A DNA stretch of 64,000 bases from Sesamum alatum. Taxonomy: Eukaryota; Streptophyta; Magnoliopsida; Lamiales; Pedaliaceae. Location of the stretch: positions 26,765,395-26,829,394 of the forward strand of contig JACGWO010000004.1 of the NCBI GenBank assembly GCA_034509735.1, read 5' to 3'. Made by a program: the position numbers and the translations under genes. The notes beneath the pieces are model-generated. The model ran no database searches and was not told the origin of the DNA. It saw nothing but the letters and a program-made list of their open reading frames with translations. Below, piece after piece: positions 11,922 to 51,150 of this stretch (positions within the stretch are counted from its first letter, which is position 1; each line of letters starts with the position of its first letter).

Positions 11922-12740
11922 TTTCCACAGTAGTACTCTGAATATCTCCAGGGATCATTCTTCTATATGCTCGTGACTTTGAGCCAATCCTGTCAACATC
12001 ATGATGTGTGCAACCAATTCTTCAATCTCTATATTGTTTAGTCAATGATAATTATAATATGAGGAAAGTAAATGTGTGAACTGTTTCAAAGTTCAGACAA
12101 ATCCTATGATGTGATTAGTACAAATAAGTAAAGGAAAATAAGTTGTTTACTTTCATATAATATTAACACTTACTTCTCTTGCAGCGCTGTTTTGGGAATC
12201 TTGGCAGAAAAAAGTAGATCAACTTTGCTGGCATGTGCAACTGCTGCAAGTAATAAACACTTTTAAACAACAAGGGATGAGCAATTAGTATAAGTTTCTA
12301 TCTAATTTCTCTTCCTAACTAATTTTGCATTCTGTGGTATAGAAATAGGATTAAAACTTAAAATTCAGGATTATAAAGAAGCTCTAATTAATTGCTTTTT
12401 GTCTCCTCGTACAATTATGATGCTATTCTGGTAAACAAATTACAGATGCTAATGCTTTTCTTCTTTGTGTATAGCAGCCACCTTTCTGATTAATTTACTA
12501 AGAATTTAGCTAAAAAGTTTCACAAAACAGCAGATATTCCACGCAGCATTCCTTTTGTCGCTTGCAATCGCTACCCTACCAATATCAAGAATGCTTCAAA
12601 CAAGTCTTCTTTAATGAAATGAAAAGGTTGCACCATGTGAATTTATTCCCACAGCCACTAAAATATTCAAAAGAATGACACACTTCTAGGAAGATGAGTT
12701 TGGATTATTAAAGAAAGCTCCTCAGCTTGCCCCTTCTCAC
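11922..12740. other. Intergenic region between the two subtilases
   Basis: This holds the 3' flank of the first subtilase and the upstream region of the second. No open frame of interest and no transposon terminus was seen. A splice-acceptor-like TTCTCTTGCAG occurs near 12175-12185, without an exon that I can recognise. Confidence 0.55.
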
Positions 12741-12750
12741 TATATAATAT
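12741..12750 (+). promoter_or_regulatory. Likely TATA box of the second subtilase
   Basis: TATATAATAT, preceded by CTCAC and followed by GCCAATCAG, lies 47 bp before the ATG at 12797. This is a reasonable TATA position if the 5' leader is short, about 20-25 nt. Confidence 0.45.
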
Positions 12751-12796
12751 AGCCAATCAGACCAGATGCTACCAAAGTAGAAACCTTCAGGGGAGA

Positions 12797-15084
12797 ATGG
12801 TGCTGGTTAAGACAGTTCCTCTAGTTTTGTTCTCATGGTTTCTCTTGGCTCATCATGCTTCAACACAAAGATCAACTTATATTGTCCATATGGACAAGTC
12901 TTCCATGCCCAAGGCCTTTGCCAGTGGCAACCATTGGTATTCTAGTACCTTGGAATCCATCAAATCAGTCGGTCTCAAGTCATCGGATGGGCACCAGGCC
13001 GGTCCCAAGCTGGTCCATAGCTATGACAATGCTTTTCATGGATTCAGTGCACTGATGTCGAAGGATGAGCTAGAATCCTTGAGGAGATCACCTGGTTTTC
13101 TCTCGGCTCATGTTGACCGTCCAGTCACACCTGACACCACTCATACGTACAAATTTCTTGGGCTGAACACTGCCTCGGGAATATGGCCAGCATCTCAATA
13201 TGGGAAAGATGTGATTATCGGTGTCGTTGACTCTGGTATCTGGCCGGAAAGTCCAAGCTTCAGAGATGAAGGAATGACTGAAGTTCCAGCAAGATGGAGA
13301 GGGAGTTGTGAGGTGGGCCAAGATTTCAATTCATCATTGTGTAATAAGAAAATTATTGGAGCTAGATGGTTCAATCAGGGGGTTCTAGCAGCCAATCCTG
13401 ATGTTACAATAAGTATGAATTCAACAAGAGATACCTTTGGTCATGGCACACACGTCGCTTCCATTGCTGCCGGGAATTATGTCAAGGATGTTTCGTTCTT
13501 TGGCTATGCTCCTGGGACAGCAAGAGGGGTGGCTCCTCATGCTAGGCTAGCCGTATACAAAGTCCTTTGGGATGAAGGAAGCTATGAGTCTGATGCACTT
13601 GCAGGTATTGACCAGGCCGTTGCTGATAATGTTGATGTTTTGTCAATCTCGTTAAGTTACCGAACTATTGATTTGTATGAGAATCCCATAGCAATTGCTG
13701 CCTTTGGTGCAATGGAGAAAGGCATTCTTGTTTCTGTTTCGGCGGGAAATCGTGGTCCAGATTTTGGAACTTTACTCGAGGGAATCCCATGGGCAGTCAT
13801 AGCGGCATCAGGAACAGTTGACCGTTGGTTTGCTGGGATCTTGACGCTGGGGAACGGTTTGACCATCACCGGCTGGACCATGTTTCCTGCAAGAGCAACA
13901 GTCAGAAACTTGCCTCTCTATTACAATAAGACCTTATCAGCTTGCAATTCAACTGAACTATTGGCAGACGCTCCCTCTGCTATCATCATTTGTGTCCAAT
14001 CTTTTGATACTGCAGAATTCTCTGATCAAATCAGCTATGTTTCACAATCAAATGCACTCGCAGCTATTTTTATTTCTGAAGATACTAGTATACTTCGATT
14101 CACTTCTTTTCCGTATCCTGGTGTTGTAATTACCCCCAAACAAGGAAAAAGTGTGATCAGGTATGCCTCGAATAGTTCTGAACGACAGCAAGCATCAACT
14201 TCCAGCAGACAATCCTGGGGAAGAAGCCGAGGCCTGCTCCAGCTGTATCTGCATCGTCATCAAGGGGTCCAGCACGAAGCTATCCAGGCATCTTGAAGCC
14301 CGACATAATGGCACCTGGTGTATTAATATTAGCAGCCTATAATCCATACATGTCTGTAGCAAATATCGGTTCCAACATAGCATTGTCTAGTGACTACAAT
14401 CTAGAGTCGGGTACATCAATGGCTTGCCCGCATATCTCTGGAGTTGCTGCACTCCTGAAAGCAGCACATCCTGAGTGGAGTCCTGCAGCTATTCGATCGG
14501 CCATGATGACCACTGCAAATCCAATTGATAACACTCAAAAACCCATCAAAGATATGGGGCATGATTACGATGTCGCCACACCGTTGGACATGGGAGCAGG
14601 ACAAGTTGATCCGAATCGTGCACTTGATCCAGGACTTATATATGATGCCACTCCTCAAGACTATGTAAATCTGGTATGTGCCCTGAATTATACTCGTGAA
14701 CAAACTAAATCTATCATAAGATCAAGCTACAACTGCTCGAGTCCATCTACTGATCTTAATTACCCGGCATTCGTCGCGCTATACGACCCACTACAAGAAA
14801 GAACTACTCTAACCCAGAAATTCCAAAGAACTGTCACAAACATGGGGGATGGTGCTACTACATACAAAGTAAAGGTGAAAAGGCCGAAGGACTCTGTGAT
14901 TACAGTATCCCCCGAGAGATTAGTCTTTCAGAAGAAAAATGAGAAGAAAAGGTTCTCTTTAACCATACGCTATAAGACTTACGACGAGTATGTCATCAAT
15001 CATGGATCAATCACTTGGGTGGAAGAGAATGGCAAGCACACTGTGAGGAGTCCTATTGTGGTGACCCCTCCAGAGCCCTCATGA
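12797..15084 (+). pseudogene. Subtilisin-like serine protease (SBT1.9/SBT3 type), tandem paralogue with one frameshift
   Basis: This is an intronless subtilase closely related to the gene at 9488. It has a signal peptide (about residues 1-23), an I9 propeptide from STYIVHMDK, and a catalytic domain with Asp145 (VVDSG), His216 (GHGTH) and oxyanion Asn318 (SAGN). A PA-type insertion follows, then the Ser motif SGTSMACPH (Ser codon at 14416) and a C-terminal Fn3-like domain. The frame from 12797 ends at 14296 after some 35 out-of-frame residues. Comparison with the paralogue places a loss of one base at about 14180-14190, just before the serine half, which resumes in the frame of 14293-15084. 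Allowing for that base the gene is about 762 residues, a normal length. With the catalytic residues separated, the written sequence would not give active protease. A recent pseudogene or a sequencing error are both possible. Confidence 0.9.
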
Positions 15085-17098: not shown

Positions 17099-18505
17099 GG
17101 CAAAATTGCATTTTTGGTCCCATATGATAGGGTCATTCTCACATTTGGTCCCGTGCTTTTATTGTTGATACTTTTGGTCCCAAAATCTTAATCTTTTAGC
17201 ACTTTTGGTCCCAAACAGTTAAATTTGACGGAAAACGGCACGTGATTGAACATGTGCCGTTAGTCAACACTCATGGAGGCTAGAAAACGGTCTTCTGCCA
17301 TTAGCTCTTGCAATATGGAGGGAAAAAGTGGCGCCAAATGCACATTTTACTCACTTTTACCTATTTATACCCATGAAAAAGTTCAAAAAATCTTATTTCC
17401 TCATTTTACAGCAAAAAATTGCTTCTTAATTTATATTCCTCTATTTTCATGAAAAATAGCAGGGAAAAACATGTCACAAACCTCTGAAAATGCTAGAAAT
17501 ATTGAATGCTATTGCCATAAACCCGTTCATTTAAAGACCTCATGGACAAGTGACAACCCAGGTAGGAGGTTTTTTATTTGTTCTTGGAGGAGAGACAGAT
17601 GGATGTGGGTTTTTATGTGGTTAGATTCATCAATGTGCATGAGAGTTACCATTATAATTCCTGATTTGTTGCGCCGACTGAACGTACAAGCGGAAGAAAT
17701 TCAGAATTTACGTAGGAAAAATCAAATTTTGATTTCGGTAATGGTCGGATATTTTCTGTTGTTGTTATATATGTTGGTAGTTTGAGGAAAGCGGTTTATT
17801 ATGTAGATTTTTTTAGGAGGTTATGTATTAGTAATTGACCTTTTAGTAATGGTCAGTAGTGTAACTGGATGCAAGTAATTAAGTTTTTAAATGTCTACTT
17901 AGTTTATGTTGTTCTGTAGAAAATAGAAAATAAAGGGTTCATCCATTCACAGAAAGCAAAAAAATACTCATCCATTAACAAAATACATAACTCATCCATC
18001 CATTAATAATATTTTGAGCAAATATACCGGTTTACATCTCAAAGAAGGTGCCCAAAATTGCAGCATACTTACAAAATTAGTCACAAAATTTTTTGGACTT
18101 TTCACAAAATTGCAGCATACTTACAAAATTATGAATAAGATGTTTTTGCCTGCTATTTTTCACAAAAGCAGAGGAATATAAATTAAGAAGCATTTTTTTG
18201 CTATCAAATGAGGAAATAAGATTTTTTGGACTTTTTCATGGGTATAAATAGGGAAAAGGGAGTAAAATGTGCATTTGGCGCCACTTTTTCCTTCCATATT
18301 GCAAGAGCTAATGGCAAAAGACCGTTTTCCAGCCTCCATGAGTGTGCACATGTTCAATCACGTGACGTTTCCGGTCAATTTTAACAGTTTGGGACCAAAG
18401 GTGTTAAAAAATTAGGATTTTGGGACCAAAAGTGTCGACGACCAAAAGTACGAGACCAAATGTGAGAATGACCCTATCCTATGGGATCAAAAGAGTAATT
18501 TTGCC
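17099..18505. mobile_element. Mutator-like element with long terminal inverted repeats and a GRF-type ORF
   Basis: The element is 1407 bp with terminal inverted repeats of about 365 bp each (17099-17465 and 18145-18505) starting GGCAAAATT. They carry repeated TTTTGGTCCC motifs. It is flanked by an exact 9-bp direct repeat TTAACTTTA (17090-17098 and 18506-18514), the size expected for the Mutator superfamily. The inverted Helitron paralogue has one uninterrupted copy of this 9-mer on the minus strand (38574-38582) in matching flanks, so the insertion is directly demonstrated. No transposase is present; the internal segment carries the ORF at 17471. Confidence 0.92.
17471..17785 (+). CDS. Small GRF-type zinc-finger protein with coiled coil and C-terminal membrane segment
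   Basis: This 104-residue protein has an N-terminal GRF-type zinc-finger-like module: CYC at about 13-15, then the family-typical TSxxNPGRRFFICSW at about 26-40. The final zinc ligand expected before the FxWxD-like end (FMWLD) appears to be missing, so metal binding may be impaired. A short charged helix (about 60-83, QAEEIQNLRRKNQ) and a hydrophobic segment (about 86-104) follow. Plant genomes encode many proteins of this GRF-helix-hydrophobic layout. The frame begins only a few bases after the left inverted repeat of the MULE and fills much of its interior, so it travels with the element. Whether it is captured host sequence or an element protein cannot be told from sequence alone. Confidence 0.6.
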   Translation: MSQTSENARNIECYCHKPVHLKTSWTSDNPGRRFFICSWRRDRWMWVFMWLDSSMCMRVTIIIPDLLRRLNVQAEEIQNLRRKNQILISVMVGYFLLLLYMLVV

Positions 18506-21474: not shown

Positions 21475-21483
21475 TTTAAATAA

Positions 21484-22010
21484 GGGAAAAAGAATATTTT
21501 CGTCCTCTAACTTTGCCCAAAATTCCTTTTAGTCCTTTAACTTTGACAGTATTAGATTTAGTCCTTTATCTTTCAATTTTGCGTAGATTCGGTCCTTTAG
21601 CTCAATTAAGACCATTTTGCCCTTTTTGAGGCTAAGACACAATTAGTCCCTCCTCATGCTCTCAAAGTGGCCCAACATGCTTCCGAAATGAAATTAAGCG
21701 TCTATAAATTCATACCTTGTTTGACCGCCTTGCTGCCGGGATTCCAAGTCCTCGGTTTTACAGACTTCCTCCAACCACACTACCGCAGCAGATGGTTCGT
21801 GGATCCTTGGCTCCTTCAGCAGTAATCAGCACAGCCCTATTTCGTTTCCTACCTTAGGGCGTAAAAGTATTCCAATAATGGAGACTTAATAATATTTTGG
21901 GTAGACCAATTGAATAGAAGCCTATAATTTATTGAAGAAATATTTGGAATATTACATAGACATTTTAGCCCCCTATCGGAGGAGAGAACTATTTAGCCTC
22001 TCATATGGGA
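21484..22010. repeat. Left inverted arm of the pararetrovirus element
   Basis: Read on the + strand this arm resembles the right arm read on the - strand. It has the terminal TTAGTCC repeats, then a stretch aligning with the decayed primer-binding region, then the 19-mer TTTATTGAAGAAATATTTG (21928-21946), then sequence matching the start of the viral leader and ORF1 (CGGAGGAGAGAAC). It is about 230 bp longer than the right arm because of an unmatched segment at roughly 21660-21890. Confidence 0.7.
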
Positions 22011-22082
22011 GAGGACTTGACTGGTTGGGGATAACCTCATACACTAGATAACCTGATACTTAGAAAATTTTAAAGACACAAT

Positions 22083-22088
22083 TTTATT
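22083..22088 (-). terminator. Possible viral polyadenylation signal
   Basis: On the minus strand AATAAA lies about 55-60 nt downstream of the TATA-like box at 22143-22154. Caulimovirids place the poly-A signal a short way downstream of the pregenomic RNA start, giving a terminally redundant transcript. The position fits, but AATAAA is common in AT-rich DNA. Confidence 0.35.
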
Positions 22089-22142
22089 TTTCTGAAGAGT
22101 TGGAGAAGTTTTTCTGATAATCCCCATCTGCTTCCTAGCTCT

Positions 22143-22154
22143 CTATTTAAAATA
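22143..22154 (-). promoter_or_regulatory. Possible pregenomic-RNA promoter TATA box of the pararetrovirus
   Basis: TATTTTAAATAG on the minus strand lies about 210 bp after the end of the last viral ORF (22365), the position of the pregenomic RNA promoter in caulimovirids. It is called on position and sequence alone. Confidence 0.4.
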
Positions 22155-22364
22155 GTCCGTGGACTTCAAACCCGGACTTCAATCTTGTTTTTTGGGTGTC
22201 GTCACTGCGTTCGTCACCAACTTTGTCTTTCATCTTTCCAGCTGTGGTCATTATGCCTTGTCGGCCATGTGCTTGCCAGCTGGTGTCATTTGTCTTTCTG
22301 ACTGTTGGCCCTTTTGTCTTCGTCTGCCGACAGTCTCCTTTTGATTTTTTACATCTTGAGGGTT

Positions 22365-23291
22365 TTACCTCCCTTTGTAAAAATCCTTTCTTTTGCCCTT
22401 CTCTGGTCTTGGTTCGGGTTTATTTTGAGTTACCCGAATCTTTGTTCCGAACAAGGGCTTTTCCTGTTTTTCACAACAAGGGCATAAGTGGTTATGCCAT
22501 TGTCCTACATGCATCATGTTGCATGCCTTCTTCCTTGTGTTCTCTGTTGCAGGCAACTTATTTTCCCATATAAGCATTCTTTTCTTTTCAAACAAGCTTT
22601 CTGCAAACTCAGTGCTTTTTCCTGTCATGGAGTTTAACAGGAATGATCCATTTAATTTATTGGAAAATATTTTAAATGGATATTTGACTTTATCCATCTC
22701 TGTGAGACAGACCCAGTATCCCCATGCTCTTCTGGTGGATATGTCATCTTCACTAAGGGAAGACACCAGGGGAGCCTCTCCTGTGGCAGCCTTGACTCGG
22801 TTGAATGCTACCATGTCTGGTCTCTGCAATTTGATGAAATGGAATGCTGGGTGAGACCCTTTTCCTGCGATTTCTGGAGCTATGGAAATGAACTTGAGCT
22901 CCAAAATATCTCCTCTTTTAAGGTGGGGATTGTTTTGCCATGCGTCATATACCGCCCCACTAATCCATTCCGGAAGCTTTGAGATTTCCGGAAAGCTTGG
23001 TGACGTAGTATGAACTGAAGCAAGGGCTCCAAAATCATACCACTCTCGTACCTCTTCTGGTTTAGACCCTTCGATCATCCAGATTCTGTTATATTTTCCG
23101 GATGTGTCTACGATGGTCTTGCCTGGGCTTATACCTTTACGGGAAACAAGTTTTTCCCATGATTTCTGATAATCCTGCCAAGCAGAAACAGAAGATAAAG
23201 CTTCGTTAGTATTAACCTTAGAGGTGCCCGTCATGCACCTCCGTACAAGTGCTGCGTACAAGTTCCGTTCAGAATGATTGGGAAAGATCAA
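22365..23291 (-). CDS. Distal pararetroviral ORF (transactivator/ORF4 position), function unassigned
   Basis: This is an intact 308-residue frame at the 3' end of the viral genome, where caulimovirids carry a transactivator (TAV) or the tungrovirus ORF4 protein. I do not recognise a diagnostic TAV motif. Residues about 35-190 look globular (WQDYQKSWEKL; GAVYDAWQNNP; RGDILELKF). Near the C-terminus is a dense Cys/His cluster (CNMMHVGQWHNHLCPCC, about 257-273) followed by a basic tail, which suggests a metal-binding, nucleic-acid-associated end. It follows the coiled-coil ORF at 23391-23837 with about 100 bp between, so the N-terminus could originally have lain further upstream. Confidence 0.6.
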   Translation of the reverse strand: MIFPNHSERNLYAALVRRCMTGTSKVNTNEALSSVSAWQDYQKSWEKLVSRKGISPGKTIVDTSGKYNRIWMIEGSKPEEVREWYDFGALASVHTTSPSFPEISKLPEWISGAVYDAWQNNPHLKRGDILELKFISIAPEIAGKGSHPAFHFIKLQRPDMVAFNRVKAATGEAPLVSSLSEDDISTRRAWGYWVCLTEMDKVKYPFKIFSNKLNGSFLLNSMTGKSTEFAESLFEKKRMLIWENKLPATENTRKKACNMMHVGQWHNHLCPCCEKQEKPLFGTKIRVTQNKPEPRPEKGKRKDFYKGR

Positions 23292-23390
23292 ACCTATTTG
23301 AACCGCTCACATCACAGTAGTCGTAGCGTAAAGGCCGTAAGTCGAGGGGCAGCCATAACATAAGAGAGAACAGCAAGAGGGCAATTCCCT

Positions 23391-23837
23391 TTACGGCCTA
23401 AGGTTAATCTCTTCCTCTTTTACCCCAGAGGTGCTGGGTTGACTTGAATTATCAGGAGTTTGTACTTCCTGTAACTCAACTTTTGCCTGTTCACCAGAGT
23501 CTGGCGATGGCCTTGTGCAAGCAGTACTTGAATCTGCCGCTTCAGGTTTAGAGCCCTGTTCTCTAATTGCAGGTTTAGAGCCCTGCTCTCTTAATTCTCG
23601 GGCTATCACCGAAGATGACGCCTTTCGAATTGGTTCCAGTAGGTCGTCCCATAACGAGCTTGCAGCAAGTTTGGTACTCCTGATGGCGCTCTGGACGGTG
23701 TCCAGATCAGCTCGTTGGACTTGGCCAGCTATTTGGGCTTTAATTGTTAGCTGTCCAAATCTCTTATCAATCTCCTCAAGGTTCTCCCTGAGGTGTCTGA
23801 GCCTGATGATGACGGAGTCTGCTTCAGCTGCCTCCAT
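23391..23837 (-). CDS. Small pararetroviral coiled-coil ORF between pol and the distal ORF
   Basis: This is an intact 148-residue frame. The N-terminal half is heptad-rich and charged (LRHLRENLEEIDKRF), so probably coiled coil. The C-terminal half is Ser/Pro/Glu/Gln-rich and looks disordered. The peptide REQGSKP occurs twice (about residues 82-97), encoded by a short tandem DNA repeat. Its ATG overlaps the degraded 3' end of the RNase H frame, the close packing usual in caulimovirids. It might be the N-terminal part of the distal ORF, separated by a break at 23291-23391. No homologue is recognised. Confidence 0.55.
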   Translation of the reverse strand: MEAAEADSVIIRLRHLRENLEEIDKRFGQLTIKAQIAGQVQRADLDTVQSAIRSTKLAASSLWDDLLEPIRKASSSVIARELREQGSKPAIREQGSKPEAADSSTACTRPSPDSGEQAKVELQEVQTPDNSSQPSTSGVKEEEINLRP

Positions 23838-24115
23838 CTCTTGTTAAGAAATCTGCAAGAACATTTTTCATGAGATTTGATAATGACAATATCATAACAA
23901 TAATATTGGCATTCTGCCTGCCACCTAATAATACGAGCTTTCTCAATCTTTGATTCAAGTTTATTTTTTAAGAAAGCCTTAACATTCCTATTATCAACTT
24001 TTAATGTAAATTCTTTGGCTAGTAAGAACAAAGGCCATTTTTTGAAAGCCTTCCAAACTGCAAAGAATTCCTTCTCGTTAATATGCCATAATTTGGCTTG
24101 TTGTTCGGTGAACAA
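23747..24115 (-). pseudogene. Pararetroviral RNase H fragment of pol
   Basis: This is the C-terminal RNase H part of the pol polyprotein. The Glu-containing helix (INEKEFFAVWKAF) and the following Asp (LKVDNRN) are visible. The first catalytic Asp motif (YTDAN) lies in the preceding, different frame. The final conserved His/Asp segment is disrupted by a frame change at a short A run near 23860, after which the frame reads unrelated residues into the next ORF. RNase H degrades the RNA strand during minus-strand DNA synthesis. As written it is separated from RT by a frameshift and is not functional. Confidence 0.8.
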
Positions 24116-24128
24116 CCCTCCTGAGTAT

Positions 24129-25178
24129 CTACATGGCTCTTCGCCAGTAGCCGTTTTTTCTCATGAGCACTGCTGCCCATCTGTAATTGTTGGCGTCCGT
24201 GTAAACTACCAACTCATCTTCGTCTTGGGGAATTGCAAGCTTTGGCAGGCTATTGCAAATCTGTTTTAACTCCCGGACCCTTTGCGTATGTATTTCCTCC
24301 CATTTCCACTTTGAACTTTCTGTTTCTTTCAGGAGTGGACGGAAATCCTTTCTGTATTTTGCAAGGTCCTTGATAAAGATTCCTGCAAAATTGACAACTC
24401 CTAAGAAGCTTTGGAGTTGTTTCTTATCTTTAAGAGTGTCAGGAAAATTGCGAATCTTCTCTACAATGTGTTCCTGCAACTCAATACCTGCCTCGTCAAT
24501 AAGAATTCCTAAAAATTCAATTTTATTGACAGCTATAATGGCTTTCTTTTCAGAGAGCACTAGTCCCTCCTTATGACATGCATCGGAAAATATTTCAAGT
24601 TGTCTAATATGATCCTGTATATTTTTAGATGCAATCAAGATATCGTCTATGTAAACAAACATAAACTCTAGATAGTCTTTGAAAAGATTATCCATCTTTC
24701 TTTGAAATATCTGGGGTGCATTGGCAAGTCCCATTGGAAGTACATTCCAGATATATTGTCCATGAGGTGTGGAAAATGCAGTATATTTCTTTGAGTCATT
24801 TTCCATCTTAATCTGATAGAATCCAGATTTGCAATCAAACTTAGAAAACACTTTAGCACCTTTAATGCAATCAATTAAGTGTTCTCTACTTGGGATATAA
24901 TAACCATCAAATTGTAATATTCTATTGATGCCTTGATAGTTAATAACTAACCTGGGTTTACCTCTTTTTATCTCACCATGATTTCTTACCAGAAAACCAG
25001 GGCTACTATAGGCAGAGACTCCAGGCTCAATGAGTCTAAGATTGATATGCTCTTTGATGATCTCCTGCATATCTTTCTTATCCTCCATGTTCATTTGGAT
25101 GGGCTTGTATCGGACATACTCGTACTTGCATTCCTCTTTGACCTTTAGAGTAGCCTCGATCTTGTTTTTTCCCACCAT
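24129..25178 (-). pseudogene. Pararetroviral reverse transcriptase fragment of pol
   Basis: The RT palm and fingers are well preserved over about 349 residues: RPLVINYQGIN-type motif (about 75-84), FDCKSGFYQI with Asp115, PMGLANAPQIFQRKM (about 148-162), YIDD (176-179), FLGILID, and the thumb/connection. The N-terminal start of the RNase H domain (VVYTDANN) closes the frame. YIDDILIAS and the overall spacing are typical of Caulimoviridae rather than Ty3/gypsy; there is no integrase downstream. It is out of frame with the protease upstream (break near 25170) and with the rest of RNase H downstream (near 24120-24160), so no continuous pol product can be made. Confidence 0.9.
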
Positions 25179-25867
25179 GCCAAAGGATTCTCACTGAAAT
25201 TCCTTTGAATAAGTCTCTTGACATTCTCGAGAGAGAGTTTACTTTCTCCGTCCATGTCCATCGACCTGCATTCTTGTATAGCTTCCTTTAAGATCCTAAG
25301 ATCTTCTTCCGAAGCATCATCAAAGCCCTGTTGCCTGAAAGACAAAAGAGCCTTACCAAATTTTCTTTTATCCTGCATTTTTGGATGGGTTAATTTGGCA
25401 TCATCACCACGTTTGCTGCGAAAATTTATGGGCATTATCCTGTTAAATGCCTTTTCTCTTCGCAAAACCTGTATCTCGCTACCACAGTTAGTAGTAAAAA
25501 TCAACAGATTTTTGTGGTTATCCTGGACATATTTTGCAAAGGTTTGGATGAAATTATTACCTAACAAAATATCTGCTCCTGTATCATGAAAGTAAATAGG
25601 AGGCGTTTTTACCTTGAACCAAGGTGTTCCAAATGCTCCTCCAATCATGATTTTTGCTTCTCGTATACCCTTATTGAGTACAAGAATTTTTTGTGAAAAA
25701 TCCCTTCCTGCAATAATGGGTAAGGATTCCATAGCTTCGCTAGGGAATACACCAGGTTTTGCCGTGCAAATCCCTGATCCTGAGTCAATATAAGCTGCAA
25801 AATATTCTGACTTATATTGTTCATACAACATACCAACAGATATGTATATAGAAAAGGGGCTCGTCAT
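25145..25867 (-). pseudogene. Pararetroviral aspartic protease, N-terminal part of pol
   Basis: This 240-residue frame has a retroviral-type aspartic protease active site DSGSG (Asp28) after a hydrophobic strand (AAYID) and a second conserved ADILLGNNFI (about 93-102). It would cleave the viral polyprotein. Its ATG overlaps the stop of the movement-protein frame by 4 nt (ATGA), so translation was probably coupled. The frame leaves the pol sequence near residue 230, where a frameshift separates it from RT. Confidence 0.82.
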
Positions 25868-27096
25868 TCAATTCTAATGGTATAACCATCCAAACTGAAT
25901 TCCATACCATTACCTTTCCTACCCCATGGTTTATGATCTTCAAGGAAATTTATTCCTAGAGTCATTATCCCATTTTCTCGTCCTGTAACAATAATCTCAT
26001 GGCCTGCTATTTCTAGCATACCTTCATATTTTCCCACAACAGGTTGTTGTAGATGGTATAAGTCATCACAAGGAAAACAATTTTCTGTTCTAGTGATGTC
26101 AAATATAACTTGGATTTGTTTCCAGCCTTCAGGGCACCTAAGTTTTACGTTATCCACCCTAATAGCTCGAGGCTTTAACAACTCGGGTTCCTTTCCCTTA
26201 TAGGCCATAATCCTATCTTCTGAAAAGGATATCCTGCTACTAAATTCAGTTTTAGAACTAAGGGTTCGATCTAAAACCGGGTGATCTTTTATCAAGATAT
26301 CAACACCACCTATTCTAGGTATTCTAATAGGATCTGGTGTCATTACCTTAGCGAATTCCTTGAAAATTCTAGGAATTTCAATATACTCTTTCCTAAGAAA
26401 TAAATCAGAATGATGTGTGTTGGAAAGGGCGTAAGCTATTCTATATGTTATAGAATATGGTCTATTCCCATCTTTCATAAGATCCTTTCTTTTAAAATCC
26501 TGATGAAGGGTTAAGACTCTACTGAAATCTTGGTCTGCTAGGTTGTATGCTATCCTAGGATGAATATCAAACATCAATTTTCCTGCATACAAATTTCCTA
26601 TCATTGTCCCAAGACAACCATCTCTTAAGTTATTGATTCTTCTATCCATTATTGACAGATGTATTTCTGAATCAATTCCTTCCTTAAAAGTTGCTTTTAT
26701 TACTACTTCAATAGCTCCTATATGGATCCATTTCATAGTAACCGCTACTTCCTCTCTAAGTTTACTTAATTCTTCAAGAATTTCTTCTTTAGGAATAAGT
26801 TGCATTTCCATAACATTACCAGTAAGTTCCATAGGAATTGCAAACTCACCTGAACTTACTTTGTAGATGATATGATGTTTCCTCTGGTTTAGTCCTATCT
26901 GGTTAAGGACTCTTCCGATTCCTCCAATCCTAAATCCGTCATATGGGCAGAGATTAGAGTCTTGTCTCATGATTCTTTCCATGGTTTTGTTTGATACCGT
27001 CAACTTTGAAAAGAATCCTGATAGGCTATCTGAGGTTTGGAGCCTATCTCCTTCGTTGTAATTACTCTGATTCGGTTGAAGATCCATCCGAATCAC
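25864..27096 (-). CDS. Pararetroviral movement protein (30K superfamily)
   Basis: This is an intact 410-residue frame. Residues about 121-201 carry the core of the 30K movement proteins as found in caulimovirids (MKWIHIGAIEVVIK, IMDRRI, LGTMIGNLYAGKL, then a predicted strand ending LTLHQDF). Such proteins line plasmodesmata to move virions or nucleic acid between cells. The start overlaps the end of the coat-protein frame by 35 nt and the stop overlaps the protease start by 4 nt. It lies after the coat protein. This order is known from cavemovirus/solendovirus-type genomes and differs from badnaviruses and tungroviruses. Confidence 0.8.
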   Translation of the reverse strand: MIRMDLQPNQSNYNEGDRLQTSDSLSGFFSKLTVSNKTMERIMRQDSNLCPYDGFRIGGIGRVLNQIGLNQRKHHIIYKVSSGEFAIPMELTGNVMEMQLIPKEEILEELSKLREEVAVTMKWIHIGAIEVVIKATFKEGIDSEIHLSIMDRRINNLRDGCLGTMIGNLYAGKLMFDIHPRIAYNLADQDFSRVLTLHQDFKRKDLMKDGNRPYSITYRIAYALSNTHHSDLFLRKEYIEIPRIFKEFAKVMTPDPIRIPRIGGVDILIKDHPVLDRTLSSKTEFSSRISFSEDRIMAYKGKEPELLKPRAIRVDNVKLRCPEGWKQIQVIFDITRTENCFPCDDLYHLQQPVVGKYEGMLEIAGHEIIVTGRENGIMTLGINFLEDHKPWGRKGNGMEFSLDGYTIRIE

Positions 27097-28501
27097 TTTC
27101 TATTTCTTCCTCGTAGATGCTTTCATCTGAGGGAAGATCTTCGAATTGATAGATTGGTACCAAATCACCATAGTAGACTGCATCTAGGATGTCGTTTGTG
27201 GCTTCAAACTGGCGTAATTCACCACGTTTCTGCGGGCAATCTGGGGAGATATGTCCCTTTGCTCCGCACGTCCAGCAGTTGCAATCCTTAAAACTTTCAT
27301 TAGCTCGGGTATGGGCTCTTCTGAAAGTTCTTCTTGTAGGGGTTCGTCCTCTGGATTTCGCCTCTGATCGTCTAGATCCTTGGGATGAAACCCTTATTGG
27401 TCCTGTTCTCTGTCCAGATTTGTATGATCTGGCTTTTAATTTAGACCACCATGATCTTCTTCTAAAAGAGGATTTTCTGGAACTCCTGGAATAAGAGTCA
27501 CCACCTTGCTTTCTCCTCTTCTTTTGCTCGCTTGATTCCCCTATAATAGTTGGAAAATCATTATTATCACAACAGAGAGGGGTTCTTTTGATTTTACCTC
27601 TCAGTCTCTTCATGTTCTTTTGGACGGATGCTTGGTAACACCAATCCTTCAGTTTGTCTTTAAGAAAAGACATCCTCCTTGCAACTGAATCCAGCTGCCC
27701 TGCAGGTACTTTGTAAGATTGTATCAACATTTCCCTCCACGGGCTGCAGATCTTTGCAAAGAACATTGGGGCGGCTACTTTGGTTGTTACCCCACTCTGG
27801 AAGAAGTATTTGCGGAACCAATAGATATATTCGTCTACAGCACAGATACTTCTTAACTCGAGACCAAAGAGAGCTTGTGCATACTCCCTAGCCTTTTCCG
27901 TTCTGCTTCCTTCGAAGTATCCATCTCCGATGAAATGGATTTTGATTAGCCTCCCGAGCCTATCCGCGATTGCACTTTTAGACTCCCCTTCAAGGATGCT
28001 TGCTTTGGTCTCTTCTGGGGTATTATCCCACCCGATCTTTACCGACCCTTCTAAGCTTAACTCCAAAAGTTTTATGAAGTTATCTTTGTCTAGTTCCAAC
28101 GTAGTTGCTGCAATTTTCATGGCTGCAACCCATTCATCTATCAGCTTCTCGATGTTTCGGAAGTCGATAACATCCAGGTTGAGTACCGTGCCATATGGGT
28201 GTAAGCGCTGGAGCATGGTCCTTGCCCATGGTGTGTTCTCAGGCACTCGTTTTGGATTTCTTCCTGGATTTTCTCGCAATCTTGTCCCCACGAAGGTAGG
28301 GGTAGCATTGGTGTGAAAATCTGTACCTTCTCTCATTGGCTGATCCTGTGGTGGATCATTTGAGCCTGTGCTTCCCTCCGGCGGTGGTAAAGCTGGAGCG
28401 ACCTCATTGGTTTGAATATTAACTAAATCCACAATCCCTAGTTGGGAAAAGGATTCAGCTAACTCTTGTAGATCCGATAGATCCACTCTAGATATCTCCA
28501 T
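27062..28501 (-). CDS. Pararetroviral coat protein with CCHC zinc knuckle
   Basis: This is an intact 479-residue frame. It has a variable Pro/Gly-rich N-terminus, a helical capsid core (about 95-300, containing WVAAMKI and EYIYWFRKYFF), a strongly basic Arg/Ser-rich stretch (about 325-400), the zinc knuckle Cys409-x2-Cys412-x4-His417-x4-Cys422, and an acidic Ser/Glu tail. Core, basic region, knuckle and acidic tail in that order are the caulimovirid coat-protein signature; the knuckle binds pregenomic RNA. The ATG shares one base with the stop of the preceding ORF (TAATG). Confidence 0.88.
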   Translation of the reverse strand: MEISRVDLSDLQELAESFSQLGIVDLVNIQTNEVAPALPPPEGSTGSNDPPQDQPMREGTDFHTNATPTFVGTRLRENPGRNPKRVPENTPWARTMLQRLHPYGTVLNLDVIDFRNIEKLIDEWVAAMKIAATTLELDKDNFIKLLELSLEGSVKIGWDNTPEETKASILEGESKSAIADRLGRLIKIHFIGDGYFEGSRTEKAREYAQALFGLELRSICAVDEYIYWFRKYFFQSGVTTKVAAPMFFAKICSPWREMLIQSYKVPAGQLDSVARRMSFLKDKLKDWCYQASVQKNMKRLRGKIKRTPLCCDNNDFPTIIGESSEQKKRRKQGGDSYSRSSRKSSFRRRSWWSKLKARSYKSGQRTGPIRVSSQGSRRSEAKSRGRTPTRRTFRRAHTRANESFKDCNCWTCGAKGHISPDCPQKRGELRQFEATNDILDAVYYGDLVPIYQFEDLPSDESIYEEEIESDSDGSSTESE

Positions 28502-28887
28502 TATTTTATGGATTTGATGATCTCGATGATTTGTTCCTCTTGTGTCTTTGGCTTCGAGATCTCCTTCGCCTTTCCTTTCTGATGTAGGAAAGATACTGGT
28601 CCAAGGGCGTCCCTGATGCGTTCCTGATGAGATCTGGATGTCTCAGGGGTATTCCTTTGATTTCTTCTCAGATCTGTAACCTCAATCTTCAGATCTGTAA
28701 GATCTTTCTGTAGATCTGGTAGGATTTTTAAGATCTCATCCATCTTTTGGTTCAAGAGGTCTATTTTCATAGGTATATGGATTAGCCTATGTCCATAGTC
28801 TTGAACTGTCTTTTGTACCTCTCTAAGGTCCTGAGAATACTTCGAGGTATCCGGTTCGAGTTCCTTCCAATCAGTTCCTTTAATCAT
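28501..28887 (-). CDS. Pararetroviral small coiled-coil protein (virion-associated-like)
   Basis: This is an intact 128-residue frame. A long heptad pattern (about 20-75; IDLLNQKMDEILKIL, LQKDLTDLKIEV) predicts a coiled coil, followed by a basic region. Its position and form match the ORF2/virion-associated proteins of badnaviruses, tungroviruses and caulimoviruses, which form coiled-coil oligomers and bind nucleic acid or the capsid. It begins 5 nt after the preceding stop and ends in a TAATG overlap with the coat-protein start. The function is inferred from architecture and position. Confidence 0.65.
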   Translation of the reverse strand: MIKGTDWKELEPDTSKYSQDLREVQKTVQDYGHRLIHIPMKIDLLNQKMDEILKILPDLQKDLTDLKIEVTDLRRNQRNTPETSRSHQERIRDALGPVSFLHQKGKAKEISKPKTQEEQIIEIIKSIK

Positions 28888-28892
28888 TATTT

Positions 28893-29252
28893 TTAGAACT
28901 GTATTTTTTTCAGGAATCTACCTGTTCCGGATCTCTTGGCTGGGATTCTTCCATGGATCTCAGCTCCCTGTAGACGTCTTACTGCATTTCCCGGTAACGT
29001 CTCTCGAACATGGCAATGTCTATGCCATTCCTCTCTTTCTTCTTTTGGAAGAAATGACGCATCGACCAACCTCGGACTGTTGGTGATATTTCTAAGAATT
29101 TCCATAAGAAATTCTGTTTTTTGTATTTTCAGAATCTGAAAATACTCCCTGTTTTCAGTGTAACTCGAACTTTCGCTCGGTTCCATGCTTTTAAAGTTCT
29201 CCTCCGTTAGGGATAAAACATCAATATGTAATATAAACAAATATTTCTTCAA
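28893..29252 (-). CDS. Pararetroviral first ORF, unknown function
   Basis: This 119-residue frame is the first after the primer-binding site. The true start may be the second Met (MEPSESSS, about residue 23), since the upstream part reads through leader sequence that is also duplicated at the far end of the element. The central part contains WHRHCHVRETLPGNAVRRL and the C-terminus is basic. Small first ORFs are common in badnaviruses and tungroviruses; I cannot assign a function. Confidence 0.55.
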   Translation of the reverse strand: MKKYLFILHIDVLSLTEENFKSMEPSESSSYTENREYFQILKIQKTEFLMEILRNITNSPRLVDASFLPKEEREEWHRHCHVRETLPGNAVRRLQGAEIHGRIPAKRSGTGRFLKKIQF

Positions 29253-29486
29253 TAAACCTTGGCTCTGATACCATTTGGTTTGAGCAGGGGTTAAATTTAT
29301 TAAAGGAACACAATTTGGACTAAATTGTTCAAGAAAAGTTGCAAAAGGGTAAATATGTCCAAAATACTGCCAGAGGACTAAAATTACTCATTTTTGAAAG
29401 TTACAGGACTAAAATTAAAACAGAGAAACTTAAAGGACTAAAATTAATAGATGGTAAAGTTAACGGACTAAACTAGTATTTTCCCC
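29190..29486. repeat. Right inverted arm of the pararetrovirus element
   Basis: This arm pairs with 21484-22010. It contains the terminal TTAGTCC repeats, the tRNA-Met primer-binding site, the 19-mer complementary to 21928-21946, and the region encoding the first residues of ORF1. Confidence 0.7.
29261..29273 (-). promoter_or_regulatory. tRNA-Met primer-binding site of the pararetrovirus
   Basis: TGGTATCAGAGCC on the minus strand is the classic sequence complementary to the 3' end of plant initiator tRNA-Met, used to prime minus-strand DNA synthesis in caulimovirids and many plant retroelements. It lies just upstream of the first viral ORF. Confidence 0.9.
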
Positions 29487-35343: not shown

Positions 35344-37500
35344 TCTATATATATAGCAAAACGATGGTTGACCGCAAGTAAATTAATTTTGACCAAATAT
35401 CTTTTTCTTGTAATTTTGAATTTTTTTAATTATTAAGAAAAAATTTGATTGGTTAGAAAACCTCATTTATTTAAATTAAGAGTTTAATTTGAACTTATCA
35501 CAAAATCATCTATAAAGTATTTTATTTTTTGAAGTTCGTACTTATCCATACATGATTCTATATTTAAAATCAGATACTAAATCAATTTATATTTATCTTC
35601 AATAAATTCAAATTTTAGAGGATGATGTATCATGCGTCCAGAAAATTATTTATCCTATCATTATCAATTATTTTAAATTTTAACCATATACATTTTAATC
35701 TCTCATTCATTGTTCGAAACTTGCATCGTTCTCTTGGTATATATATCATAAATTAAGTTTTAAATTTTAATTCTAAAAACAAAGTAAATTTTTTACTATA
35801 TAAAATTTTTCATTAACATTTTCTTCTCTTTTTTTTTTTTTCCAATTTTCGTAATTCTGAATATTTTAATAAAACACAAAAAATCTAATTGGAGATACCT
35901 TTGTTATGAGTTTGAATTTCACATAATAAAATCAAATCTCTCAATTCATATCTTGAAATCAAGATATCCTATAAATGAGCTAATCTTAATGAATTGTGTC
36001 CCACATTTTAGCATAAACTTTCCATCACATCACACAAATAGAAGTTTTCTAATGTTCAAAGACCAGGAGGCTCAAACCAGTCTATGGTGTCAGGAACCGC
36101 TGATCGGAGTTGTAGCTGTCCACGGAGAATTATGGATGCCTGGGTTTAAAGGGGTTTTGTTGTGTTGTGGGTGTATTTAGGATAAATACGTTTGTGTTTT
36201 GACATGATCGTTTAGGATGTAGAAGGATGAGAATACTTAACTGAATCTTGTGGTTGAAACATGTGTTGGTGTGGTTTTCCTATGAAATTTCATCGCTTCA
36301 GGTTTAAAATAGGAAATGCAACCCTTACTTCATTTATCAAATTAAAGGTTTAAGGTCGAAGAAATGAGTATTTATATTACTTTTTTTTAAAAAAAAAATA
36401 GGTAGAATTGTTTTTTTGTCGATCATTGCATGTTGTGGTTGTTTTGTTGAAGTTGCCATTTATTATTATTATTTTTTATCTTTACCTTTTTAGTTTATTT
36501 CATTGTTACGGTTTCTACAATAATCTCCGCACCTCTTTTCTATTTTTATGTTTTGCTTATATTTTCTATTTTTGTAGTCATCTCTTTTCTTTAATTCGAT
36601 TTCCTTGATTCACACATTTTTTTTATTTGATTCTTTTCCCAGAACCTTTGAATTTTTTCTTCTTTTGTATTCACGTGCCTTTCTCTGTTTTTTCTTCTTT
36701 TATTTTTGGCCTATTCATGATTTTATTAACATGAATTTTAATTCTTTTTATTTATGAATTCTATTTGTTTTAGTTTATTTTTTATTGTTTTGTTTTTTCA
36801 GTAAGGAGTCATGATTTTTCCATTTAATAATTGTATGAGCATATGTATCAAATAGTTCATCGCAATCAATATTTGTTTTTAATTTTAATTTTAATTAAAA
36901 AATCTAAATAAATGTTTGTAATTTTTGGCTTTCCTTATGTGAAAAAATAGATATGACCATGAACTTTTTTATTATAAGTTCAATCATCAAATCTCTTTGT
37001 TGATAAAAATCAAGATTTCAAAGTATGGATTTTTCATTTCCATATTTGTTTTATGATTTTTTTTTATAAAATAGCGAGGCTTCTTAAGGTTTGTTTGAAC
37101 ATTTTTTTGTGTTCAGTTCAAACCAATTATTTCAAAAATTATAGCTATAATTTTCTTTGAGTTACTTCCAATTCTTTTAATTCTTTTTTTCATAATTGAT
37201 TAGGCATTTCTTTTCTTTTGTTCTTTTATTAATATCCTTTTCTTCTCCTTTTATATATTATTTTTAAAGTTATATTTTATCGCCAATCTACTATGTAGTG
37301 CGCTTCTTTACTTCTTTAAAGGGTTGTAGTTGTATAGTTTTTATATTTGCTCTTAATATTAATTCTTGAGTATTTATTAGATTTTTCAAATTTTATTTTT
37401 TAATTATCTTATTTTCTTCATGTCCCAATTATTGCTTTTTTTTTGTTTGATTAATGATTTTTTATTTAAATATCTATCTTTAGCTATAATAATATTTTCG

Positions 37501-37532
<32 letters not shown>

Positions 37533-38865
37533 TAAATAATCATGATTTATCTTGGTATATCTCAGGCAATAATTAGATTTTAATTTTAATCGGGTACAAT
37601 AATTTTTTTTAACAATTAATATATTTCATTAACATATTTTTTGCCATTCTTTTTATTGATTCACTAATACCGATACATTAAGTTTTAATTTCATGCAAAT
37701 TTACAGGTTTTCTTTTTCTTAGTTTTTGCAATTGAATCTTTTGTTTAATCTTCCATTGTTATTGAGGTGGTAAGATTGAATGCCACTGCTTTGTTTAACA
37801 ATTGAGGTGCTATCTTTCAAACTTTTTGAACTCGGTTTCTCCTACCGTCAAAATCCAAAATAATTTTGACATCTTCTTCCATGTGAATATTCTTTTCCTT
37901 AGTGAAATAATTTTATGAATATTACTCTTATAAAATTTTAGCATAAAATATATTCCAGGCTTCATAAGTTTTACATCTTACGTTATAAAAAGATTTTCAT
38001 ACTTGATAAATGTATGATTTTTCATTTTTAATTTTTGTTTAACTTTTATTTTTTCCAAAATGTTGTGAACAAATTTTGTGTTAGTTGAAAATAATTATTT
38101 TAAATTTTAAGTTATAATTTTTTTTAAAAAAATCTTTAATTGAGTTACATAAAAAAAAATCTTTAATTGAGTTACCTAAAAAAAATTCTTTATAATTCTT
38201 TTAACGCTTTCTTTTTTTTTCCCCGCATTTTTATAAATATTTTGCTATTACGTAAAAGTATATTTTTCACTAATGGAAAGAGCGACTTAATAGAGTAGTA
38301 TGTACTAGCTTCTTTTCTTTTTATGCTCAATTTCATGTCTCTTCTGTCATTTCCTCTTCATTTTTTTTCGTTAATCTTATTTTATTCATCTTTTAAATAT
38401 TATCTTTTACTTTTTTTTTTTTGTGTTGTGGTGAATCTATTATGAAGTGTTCTTCTTTGAAGATTTATGGTTTTATAATTGAAGTATTTGCTCTTATTAT
38501 TAATTTATGAGTCTTTAGTAACAATTAACGTTGTTTTTCATATATTGTAAATTATGATTTTTCTCAATTGTTGTAAAGTTAAGCTAATTTATTGCTTAGT
38601 AATTTGTTAAAAAAAACGTATTTTGCATAATTAGTGTACCTAAAGAGTAATTTGCAATAATCATTTTACTTTTAATAATTAAAATCATACATCTAATAAT
38701 CAACACATATTCAATTGTTTTAAATATATATATTTCACTATTCTCTAAGTGGACTAAATAATTAAGTTTATACAAATAAAACATATATATTTGTGAATTT
38801 AGTTTTTGTTTTCATTCAAGATTTAAGTTAATCTTAGCCCGTGCATAGCACGGGGATTATGCTAG
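35344..38865 (+). mobile_element. Non-autonomous Helitron, inverted paralogue of the one at 16800-29623
   Basis: It starts TCTATATATATAGC after A and ends with the hairpin GCCCGTGCATAGCACGGG, nine bases, then CTAG and T: canonical Helitron termini. It is 3522 bp and non-coding. It aligns along its length with the minus-strand Helitron and holds the uninterrupted target sites for both insertions found there. Its 3' end abuts the next Helitron without any spacer. Confidence 0.9.
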
Positions 38866-49829: not shown

Positions 49830-51150
49830 ACGAAAATAGAATTAACACTACAACGGTATGGACCGGAAAAAACAGAATGCAATGGAATTTCGAGAGTATC
49901 AAATAAAAATAAATGTAAATCAAAAGGGGATCAAATCCCTTTTCCGAGTAAAAGAACTCTCCTCTACTTCGTCCCACCACACGTCGGATTGGATTGTGGA
50001 ATTCTGCTAGGATTTCCACGTGGTCATAAGATCTAGACCAAACTTTTTGATCTAGTGAAGAAATAGGGGAAATAATATTTTTCATCCCATAATTTATGGC
50101 TTTTTCATATTTGATCCTATTGAATGCGGGATTCTCATTTTTGATCCTACAACTTTAAAAAGAAGTAGCAGTTTCAATCCCATGACACTTTTTGTTATAT
50201 ATTTAACGGAAACTGCCACGTGGTTGTTAAGTGCGTGGGTCTAAAAATGTTACTTTTTGAAAGTTATGACATTAAAAGTAAAAATTTCATAATATATGAA
50301 ACCAAAAGTGAGAATCTCATAACATATGTGACTAAAAGTGTAAAGCACTAATGGCCACGTGCTAAGCACGCCGTGTTTTCTGTTAAAAAATGTGGCATGG
50401 AACCAAAAGTACTACTTTATAAAAGCTATTAGACCAAAAGTGAGAATCTCATAATCAATAGGATCAAAAGTGGAAAGACCCTAAGTTACAGGACGAAAAA
50501 TGTTATTTCTCCGAACAAATAAATAGAAAACAATCAAATACTATTATTGTTTTCGTCTTTGTTCAAGAACTTGTAACTTTTTACAAGATGAGCACAAGAA
50601 ACTCGAGAGAGAGAGGAGAGAGAGAGGGTGGAGAAAATCGACTAGACTTAAGAGGGAAGAGAGTAAAAAATTCAAGACATACAAAAAACTAAAATCTCAT
50701 GTATGTTTAAACCTACATGGCCAAGTTTGAGATTCCATGAAGAGCCCGGCTCGGCCATGAGTCCCTCAACATGGGGAAGGTTGCAACCTCTTTGCAACCT
50801 AGGACTTGTAACCTAGGTTGCAACCTCCACACTCACTAGGACTATTGACCAAGTCCTCGTGGGCTAGGGTTTGATTAAATATATGGGTTGGGCTTGTAAT
50901 TAATTTAATGATAAAATTAAATCAAGCCTAAAAATATTTAATTAGGCACTTTAAATTAATTGTATTAATTTCAAAGACTCAACCCATATTTATTTAATTA
51001 ATAACATTAATTAATCAAGTCCAATTTCATTAAATCATTCATAGTAATTTAATTAGACAAGGATCAAAATTTAATTAATCTAATTAATTAAAACTTGGGT
51101 TTTCCATCAAATGGGCTCTTCTTGAAGTGATCATTTCATTTAAATCTCTA
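49830..51150 (-). other. Possible LTR-like relic, interrupted by a MITE
   Basis: Once the MITE at 50066-50512 is removed the flanking DNA reads as one piece. Its texture (alternating ATTAATTAA-rich blocks with a transcribed-looking end near 49950) resembles copia-type LTR sequence on the minus strand. No termini or duplication were located, so this is only an impression. Confidence 0.22.
50066..50512. mobile_element. MULE-type MITE
   Basis: This 447-bp element has inverted halves with ends GGGGAAATAATATTTTTC and GGAGAAATAACATTTTTC and internal repeats of the TTTTGATCCTA type. It is flanked by a 9-bp direct repeat with one mismatch (GAAGAAATA and GAACAAATA). There is no coding. Confidence 0.78.

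What the first reader, a model, noticed from the sequence alone, without database searches (positions are those of the whole stretch)
21484..29486. A pararetrovirus genome inside a DNA-transposon-like frame
The whole viral gene set sits between diverged inverted repeats built of TTAGTCC-TTAACTTT units, and the unit is flanked by a 9-bp direct repeat. The paralogous Helitron at 35344-38865 has the intact pre-insertion site (35467-35475), so the 8-kb unit arrived as one piece with target duplication. Known endogenous caulimovirids integrate by illegitimate recombination and lack such ends. This could be a virus captured by a MULE-like element, or a viral lineage mobilised as a transposon.
Basis: partly seen in the sequence, partly recalled or inferred. 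Interest (0 to 1): 0.88.

Follow-up and report, generated by a model that had tools for sequence, protein, structure and literature searches.

The report
Plant virus built as a transposon
In a sesame-genus genome a complete plant pararetrovirus sits between jumping-gene ends and has been inserted many times at different places with the exact footprint of a DNA transposon, although such viruses are thought to have no tidy way of entering chromosomes.

Summary
Unit 21484-29486 is a whole caulimovirid genome between 71%-identical inverted ends, flanked by a 9-bp duplication, with the empty site in the paralogous Helitron. The two ends are the two halves of one viral RNA leader (uORF, shunt stem, Met-tRNA primer site), so the circle was opened there. 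In the window's own genome the same termini recur in 40 of 40 scored right-end and 40 of 40 scored left-end matches. Of 35 paired copies, 32 have exact 9- or 10-bp target duplications; swapped-pair control 0 of 650. Private mutations of copies look near-neutral (omega 0.80); lineage changes in coat and movement genes are constrained (0.23, split made). So a working virus seems to have produced the insertions. Seven of 10 further copies, movement protein 98-99% identical, carry a different but related pair of MULE-type ends with duplications. Best reading: a pararetrovirus lineage that carries exchangeable MULE-type ends and enters chromosomes through a host MULE transposase. The transposase step is inferred.

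The parts
21475..21483 (.). left copy of the 9-bp target site duplication TTTAAATAA
29487..29495 (.). right copy of the 9-bp target site duplication TTTAAATAA
21484..21626 (+). left terminal inverted repeat, about 30-nt TTTAGTCC units, begins GGG
   Evidence: recurs from base 1 in 40 of 40 scored genomic matches of 561 candidates
29343..29486 (-). right terminal inverted repeat, 71% identical to the left one
   Evidence: recurs from base 1 (38) or 2 (2) in 40 of 40 scored genomic matches of 749 candidates
29262..29273 (-). Met-tRNA primer binding site TGGTATCAGAGC
   Evidence: motif recalled; such a site is described in PMC5902531 passages
29186..29280 (-). 3' arm of the leader stem; includes the primer binding site
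   Evidence: duplex with 21904-21998, -80.9 kcal/mol; 500 single-base shuffles: mean -26.4, minimum -44.5
21904..21998 (-). 5' arm of the leader stem
21993..22040 (-). short uORF of 15 codons ending 7 nt before the 82%-identical arm (21985): ribosome-shunt take-off layout
22083..22088 (-). AATAAA poly(A) signal candidate; a second one at 21928-21933
28893..29186 (-). first long ORF (97 codons from ATG), starts 11 nt after the 82%-identical arm (29198)
28501..28887 (-). small ORF (128 aa); only a sub-cutoff coiled-coil-like Pfam match
27062..28501 (-). coat protein with zinc knuckle (both Pfam matches slightly below cut-off)
   Evidence: 97 related proteins, nearly all Sesamum
25864..27096 (-). 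movement protein (PF01107)
25145..25867 (-). aspartic protease (PF02160)
24129..25178 (-). reverse transcriptase (PF00078); frame differs from protease part, break near 25165
23747..24115 (-). RNase H remainder, frame break near 24155
22365..23837 (-). C-terminal ORF in the transactivator position, interrupted between 23391 and 23291; no Pfam match
35467..35475 (.). intact pre-insertion site in the paralogous Helitron
35344..38865 (+). paralogous Helitron copy without the unit

Best explanation
The unit is one of many insertions of a Lamiales caulimovirid lineage whose genome carries two MULE-type terminal inverted repeats inside the RNA leader. SHOWN: the unit is one complete viral gene set opened in the leader; its two termini are the same in all 80 scored genomic matches; insertions have 9- or 10-bp target duplications at unrelated sites; copies look near-neutral after insertion while the lineage is constrained in coat and movement genes; a nearly identical movement protein is found with at least two further types of ends. 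INFERRED: in the circular viral DNA the two repeats meet head to head at the tip of the leader hairpin; a host MULE transposase acting in trans recognises them and inserts the circle, opened between them, by cut-and-paste. No transposase was found in the unit. Because the viral promoter (position inferred from the leader layout) then lies at the far end of the insert, a full pregenome from one copy would need excision to a circle (inferred). The lineage seems to have exchanged its ends for those of other MULE types.
For: Same termini: 40 of 40 scored right-end and 40 of 40 scored left-end matches. Target duplications: 32 of 35 pairs exact (21 of 9 bp, 11 of 10 bp); swapped control, made with 26 of the pairs, 0 of 650 at 8 bp or more. 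Terminal 31-nt pattern: 65 exact matches, reversed control 0. The leader halves form one shunt stem. Selection: private changes N 107, S 54, stop 11 (expected 118.3, 47.8, 5.9); lineage changes N 35, S 68, stop 2 (expected 70.1, 31.6, 3.3; 0 of 10000 simulations); Fisher p 6.6e-8. End exchange: 7 of 10 further copies have type-B ends with 9- or 10-bp duplications, movement protein 98-99% identical to the window's. MULE-style ends on unrelated elements in the same window: 17099-18505 and 50066-50512. A S. angolense gene model runs from the viral leader exon into a left-repeat-like peptide (weak, see full report).
Against: No head-to-head junction of the two ends was found in the genome (0 matches, exact type-A pattern, gap 0-30), so the abutted circle is not seen. 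No transposase among the nine ORFs scanned, and no autonomous MULE with these ends showed up among the 65 pattern matches, whose interiors were not all read. In the selection test all private changes pooled gave omega 0.52 (0 of 5000 simulations); the near-neutral 0.80 appears only after the divergent copy L088 is moved to the lineage class, a split made. The lineage class is dominated by that copy (70 of 105 changes; without it omega 0.35, 9 of 10000). The 20 copies tested were chosen by similarity to the window's ends. 3 of 35 pairs lack an exact duplication.
Confidence: 0.62

Rival explanations
1. A composite DNA transposon: a MULE captured the virus once and has since multiplied by ordinary transposition from a few chromosomal source copies; the viral genes are passengers, or are kept only because source copies sometimes act as virus.
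For: Constant ends, target duplications and an internal-deletion derivative of 335 bp are all typical of DNA transposons; no junction of abutted ends seen.
Against: Passenger genes should evolve neutrally between copies, but lineage changes in coat and movement genes have omega 0.23. A nearly identical movement protein with different kinds of ends needs repeated capture or end exchange.
Confidence: 0.27
2. Nested ordinary event: an endogenous pararetrovirus happened to integrate inside a small MULE-type MITE at this one locus.
For: The empty Helitron site and target duplication are equally expected; the opening point lies near the primer-site gap, a place where viral DNA has a natural break (passages of PMC5902531 on the discontinuity).
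Against: The same viral leader piece joined to the same terminal repeat recurs in all scored matches at different sites, and 32 of 35 pairs have their own duplications.
Confidence: 0.02
3. Copies spread by segmental duplication, or are assembly artefacts.
For: Many copies are about 99% identical at the ends; CP+MP median difference 0.0114.
Against: Matching flanks of the two ends of one copy agree only with each other (9- or 10-bp duplications), and swapped pairs do not match; the 26 pairs lie on 11 contigs.
Confidence: 0.02
4. The virus has its own, unrecognised transposase or integrase, for example the C-terminal ORF, that cuts at the inverted ends.
For: The C-terminal ORF has relatives in several Lamiales genera and no Pfam match.
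Against: Nothing positive: the model is weak (mean pLDDT 57.6) and has no structural match at E 0.001 or better, which does not exclude it; MULE-style ends on unrelated elements of the same window point to a host enzyme.
Confidence: 0.07

Closest known systems
Teratorn (piggyBac-herpesvirus fusion, medaka; PMC5601938, title and abstract start seen in listing)
   Same: A virus genome propagates as a DNA transposon.
   Different: Here the virus is a reverse-transcribing plant pararetrovirus of about 8 kb, the ends are MULE-type, they lie in the viral RNA leader, no transposase was found, and several types of ends occur with a nearly identical movement protein. That Teratorn carries its transposase gene and terminal repeats is recalled.
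Endogenous pararetroviruses (review PMC10377300, passages read)
   Same: Caulimovirid gene set in a plant genome.
   Different: Integration is described there as speculative: break repair, often in TA repeats, or retrotransposon help. [quoted passage not shown] Defined ends and target duplications did not appear in the passages read.
Mutator-like elements and Pack-MULEs (PMC10741241, passages; features partly recalled)
   Same: Long inverted ends beginning GG, 9- or 10-bp target duplications, non-autonomous members with foreign cargo.
   Different: The cargo is a whole virus under selection instead of gene fragments, and no transposase was found.
IS256-family and Mu circles (recalled, no call)
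   Same: Circular forms with abutted ends are described for relatives of this transposase family.
   Different: Only an analogy for the proposed circular substrate; not observed here.

Membership tests
Caulimoviridae | movement protein, coat protein, A3 protease, reverse transcriptase with RNase H | tested here: met
   (coat and zinc-knuckle matches slightly below Pfam cut-off; 97 homologs)
[quoted passage not shown]
   layout compared with PMC5902531 passages
Caulimoviridae | genus placement by phylogeny | not tested
   no tree was made; gene order CP-MP-PR-RT noted only
Mutator-like elements | long terminal inverted repeats with constant termini | tested here: met
Mutator-like elements | target duplications of about 8-11 bp (range recalled) | tested here: met
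   32 of 35 pairs exact at 9 or 10 bp
Mutator-like elements | MULE transposase encoded by the element | tested here: not met
   no transposase among nine ORFs scanned
Mutator-like elements | mobilised by a MULE transposase in trans | not testable with these tools
   no experiment possible; no autonomous partner with the exact ends seen
Pack-MULE | captured fragments of cellular genes | tested here: not met
   cargo is a viral gene set
Teratorn-like virus-transposon fusion | whole virus genome between transposon ends, multiple insertions with target duplications | tested here: met
Teratorn-like virus-transposon fusion | transposase gene of the transposon retained (recalled) | tested here: not met

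The most novel reading that the evidence does not exclude
A pararetrovirus lineage has made DNA-transposon integration part of its life. It carries exchangeable MULE-type ends at the tip of its pregenomic RNA hairpin, so every circular viral genome is a ready-made transposon with abutted ends that host MULE transposases can insert and perhaps excise. It swaps these ends for those of other MULE families while its genes stay under viral selection.
Probability: 0.55. Interest if true: 0.96.

Novelty: new variant of a known kind. Interest (0 to 1): 0.92.

Why it matters
How plant pararetroviruses enter plant chromosomes is an open question (PMC10377300 calls the mechanisms speculative; passage seen). 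A lineage with defined ends, target duplications and many young insertions gives a concrete, testable mechanism: borrowing a host transposase through terminal repeats. It would be a second kind of virus-transposon fusion beside the herpesvirus-piggyBac case, and the first known to me in which a reverse-transcribing virus carries only the ends and leaves the enzyme to the host. It could also explain how such a virus family reaches high copy numbers in a crop genus.

Tried and rejected
Single-locus nesting in a MITE was my leading ordinary explanation until; rejected. Looking for a terminally redundant (LTR-like) structure between the ends gave nothing significant (best E 0.23). Viral contigs: relatives of MP and RT and two DNA patterns gave no loci. 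A head-to-head junction of the ends was not found. Two TATA-type patterns on the minus strand of 21484-22400 gave no match, so the promoter position is inferred. The C-terminal ORF as a transposase: weak model, no structural match. Transposase of P0067 in the window: no convincing match (best E 0.22). Literature (7 papers; 25 listed of 431; 0; 0; 15 listed of 26; 2) listed no paper that by title or abstract start is about a pararetrovirus with terminal inverted repeats; only the passages named in this report were read, so this is not a proof of absence. A mosaic test at nucleotide level between end types could not be made.
Full report
What is in the window. Minus-strand ORFs between 29186 and 22365 encode, in order, two small proteins, a coat protein with a zinc knuckle (Pfam matches slightly below cut-off), a movement protein, an A3 protease, reverse transcriptase, RNase H and a C-terminal protein without a Pfam match. 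The polymerase region changes frame near 25165 and 24155, and the C-terminal ORF is interrupted between 23391 and 23291: this copy is a decayed provirus. Coat-protein relatives are nearly all Sesamum gene models, plus three on unnamed contigs (97 hits); 495 relatives of the movement protein were found, of which 120 were listed; the C-terminal protein also has relatives in Phlomoides, Salvia, Perilla and Phtheirospermum (161 hits, 120 listed). The host is therefore most likely a Sesamum species; which one was not determined.

The frame. The unit 21484-29486 is flanked by TTTAAATAA on both sides, and the paralogous Helitron at 35344-38865 has the site unoccupied: the two flank alignments overlap by exactly the nine bases 35467-35475. 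The ends are inverted repeats of 143 and 144 bp, 71% identical (E 9e-16; score 76, maximum 34 in 1000 shuffles). Two other elements in the same window have ends of the same style without any virus: 17099-18505, inside the same Helitron copy, with duplication TTAACTTTA, and 50066-50512, with duplication 8 of 9. The style, GG start and about 30-nt GTCC units, together with 9-bp duplications, is that of Mutator-like elements (assignment recalled).

The opening point is the viral leader. A second inverted match joins 21927-21985 and 29198-29256 (82%). It is the stem of one pregenomic RNA leader. A 15-codon uORF (22040-21993) stops 7 nt before the 5' arm. The arms form a duplex of -80.9 kcal/mol (500 single-base shuffles: mean -26.4, minimum -44.5). 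The primer site (29273-29262) lies on the 3' arm. The first long ORF starts 11 nt after the 82%-identical arm, at 29186. This is the conserved shunt layout described in PMC5902531 (passages). Two TATA-type patterns gave no match, so the promoter position is inferred from this layout. The two ends of the unit are thus the two halves of one leader, and the unit is one viral genome opened inside the leader, at the tip of the hairpin that the terminal repeats would form. The region 21710-21853 recurs, at protein-translation level, downstream of viral exons in other Sesamum gene models (P0045, P0148, P0219, P0242, P0244, P0261 and partly P0259 and P0272), which shows that it belongs to the virus. 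In one S. angolense model (P0242) the peptide after the leader exon resembles the left repeat (score 41, 0 of 2000 shuffles, best other repeat 30). In the untargeted scan of the same call, unrelated proteins reach similar scores (52, 48, 46), so this rests on its position and is only suggestive.

Other copies. The own genome answered (527.7 Mb, 89 contigs). The right end (300 bases) gave 40 scored matches of 749 candidates: 38 begin at base 1 and 2 at base 2, identity 91-100%. The left end (501 bases) gave 40 scored of 561 candidates, all beginning at base 1, identity 93-100%. Only the best 40 are scored, so copy numbers are lower bounds and more divergent copies are unseen. 32 pairs could be formed, 26 of them 7.8-8.05 kb long. 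For 26 pairs both flanks were in hand: 15 have a 9-bp and 9 a 10-bp exact duplication, 2 none; among 650 swapped pairs the longest match is 7 bp. Nine more pairs, six from the first list and three completed through the terminal pattern, gave 6 of 9 bp, 2 of 10 bp and 1 without an exact repeat (10 bp with one mismatch). In total 32 of 35 are exact, the window's copy included. The terminal 31-nt pattern has 65 exact matches and none for the reversed control; all 65 read as left- or right-type ends of this family. One pair is only 335 bp apart. It is an internal-deletion derivative (1-136 equals 21484-21619, 136-335 is 99% identical to 29287-29486) and has no duplication.

How the copies arose. 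The median pairwise difference is 0.0114 (190 pairs; L074, of which only the coat part was covered, left out). Counts use sites with two alleles and at least 15 of 21 sequences; other sites were dropped. At first all single-copy changes were pooled: N 127, S 102, stop 13, omega 0.52, 0 of 5000 simulations; shared changes: N 15, S 20, stop 0, omega 0.35. One copy, L088, held 70 of the 242 single-copy changes and is a divergent branch, so I moved it to the lineage class, after seeing that result. Changes private to the other copies are then N 107, S 54, stop 11, against a neutral expectation of 118.3, 47.8, 5.9 (omega 0.80; 1568 of 10000 simulations reach the observed synonymous count). Changes shared by copies, or private to L088, are N 35, S 68, stop 2, against 70.1, 31.6, 3.3 (omega 0.23; 0 of 10000). 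The two classes differ with Fisher p 6.6e-8. Shared changes alone: omega 0.35, 9 of 10000. So copies decay about neutrally after insertion, while the lineage that produced them kept coat and movement functions. A movement protein is of use in infection, not in transposition. Private changes are a median of 8 per 2673 bp in 19 sequences (L088 and L074 left out), about 0.4 million years at a recalled rate of 7e-9; by a length cut-off, 5 of the 20 fetched pieces have an open movement gene and 6 an open coat gene.

Exchangeable ends. A protein search with the movement protein scored 102 of 905 candidates. Ten of the best-scoring places (97-99% identical) that had no type-A pair in hand were checked with 301-base stretches at the expected end positions. 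Seven have both ends of a second type (B). Its left repeat is about 80% identical to the window's over bases 44-143; its right repeat is 77-78% identical over bases 44-114 or 44-123 in five copies and 86-87% over a shorter piece in two; the outer 43 bp or more did not align. These seven have exact duplications of 9 bp (5) or 10 bp (2) next to GG...CC termini (no shuffled control was run for this search). One copy has a B-type left end only. One has ends of a third type (C) with GGTACC units and an 8-bp duplication. In the tenth, the right stretch resembles type C by eye and the left stretch is unrelated. Movement proteins of the seven type-B copies are 98-99% identical to the window's, so the ends have changed far more than this gene. 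A nucleotide-level mosaic test was not possible.

Mechanism. The shown facts fit a virus whose circular DNA is a transposon with abutted ends, inserted by a host MULE transposase. The enzyme, the circle and the direction of end exchange are inferred. Against it: no abutted ends in the genome (exact type-A pattern), no autonomous partner with these exact ends seen, no transposase among the scanned ORFs. The rival, a composite transposon multiplying from chromosomal source copies, shares the end structure but not the constraint on infection genes. A viral transposase of its own is not excluded: the C-terminal protein model is weak (pLDDT 57.6) and without a structural match.

What is known. The review PMC10377300 (passages) treats caulimovirid integration as speculative: break repair or retrotransposon help, with one sentence on a hijacked transposon-derived integrase. 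Its cited reference number, in the part of the list I read, is a paper on retrotransposon insertions in human disease. PMC10741241 (passages) describes endogenous pararetroviruses as lacking functional integrase and LTRs. The nearest precedent in kind is Teratorn (PMC5601938, listing with abstract start). Searches listed no paper that by title or abstract start is about a pararetrovirus with terminal inverted repeats and target duplications; lists 20 and 50 were cut.

Noticed in passing
17099-18505: A second TIR element (ends about 380 bp, 88% identical, TTTGGTCCC units, duplication TTAACTTTA) inside the same Helitron copy; it holds a short ORF that looks like a GRF-type zinc finger (by eye, not scanned).
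   Followed up: partly
50066-50512: A 447-bp MITE with ends in the same style as the viral unit; flanks GAAGAAATA and GAACAAATA (8 of 9).
   Followed up: partly
L089 (G000:C79:33833753-33834087): A 335-bp internal-deletion derivative with both viral-unit ends and no target duplication.
   Followed up: yes
P0045, P0244, P0259, P0261 (proteins): Sesamum gene models in which a viral leader exon, ending at a splice-donor-like site near window 21710 (by eye), is joined to what look like host gene exons: possible virus-driven chimeric transcripts, or annotation errors.
   Followed up: partly
P0067: S. latifolium gene model fusing a MULE transposase domain with coat protein residues 13-180; it could mark a virus copy beside or inside an autonomous MULE.
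   Followed up: partly
L119, L120: A third type of inverted ends (GGTACC units) around a viral copy with 98% identical movement protein.
   Followed up: partly
9488-15084: Two diverged tandem long-ORF gene copies that look like subtilases by eye (not scanned), one with an exact tandem duplication of a 124-bp unit at 9915-10163.
   Followed up: no
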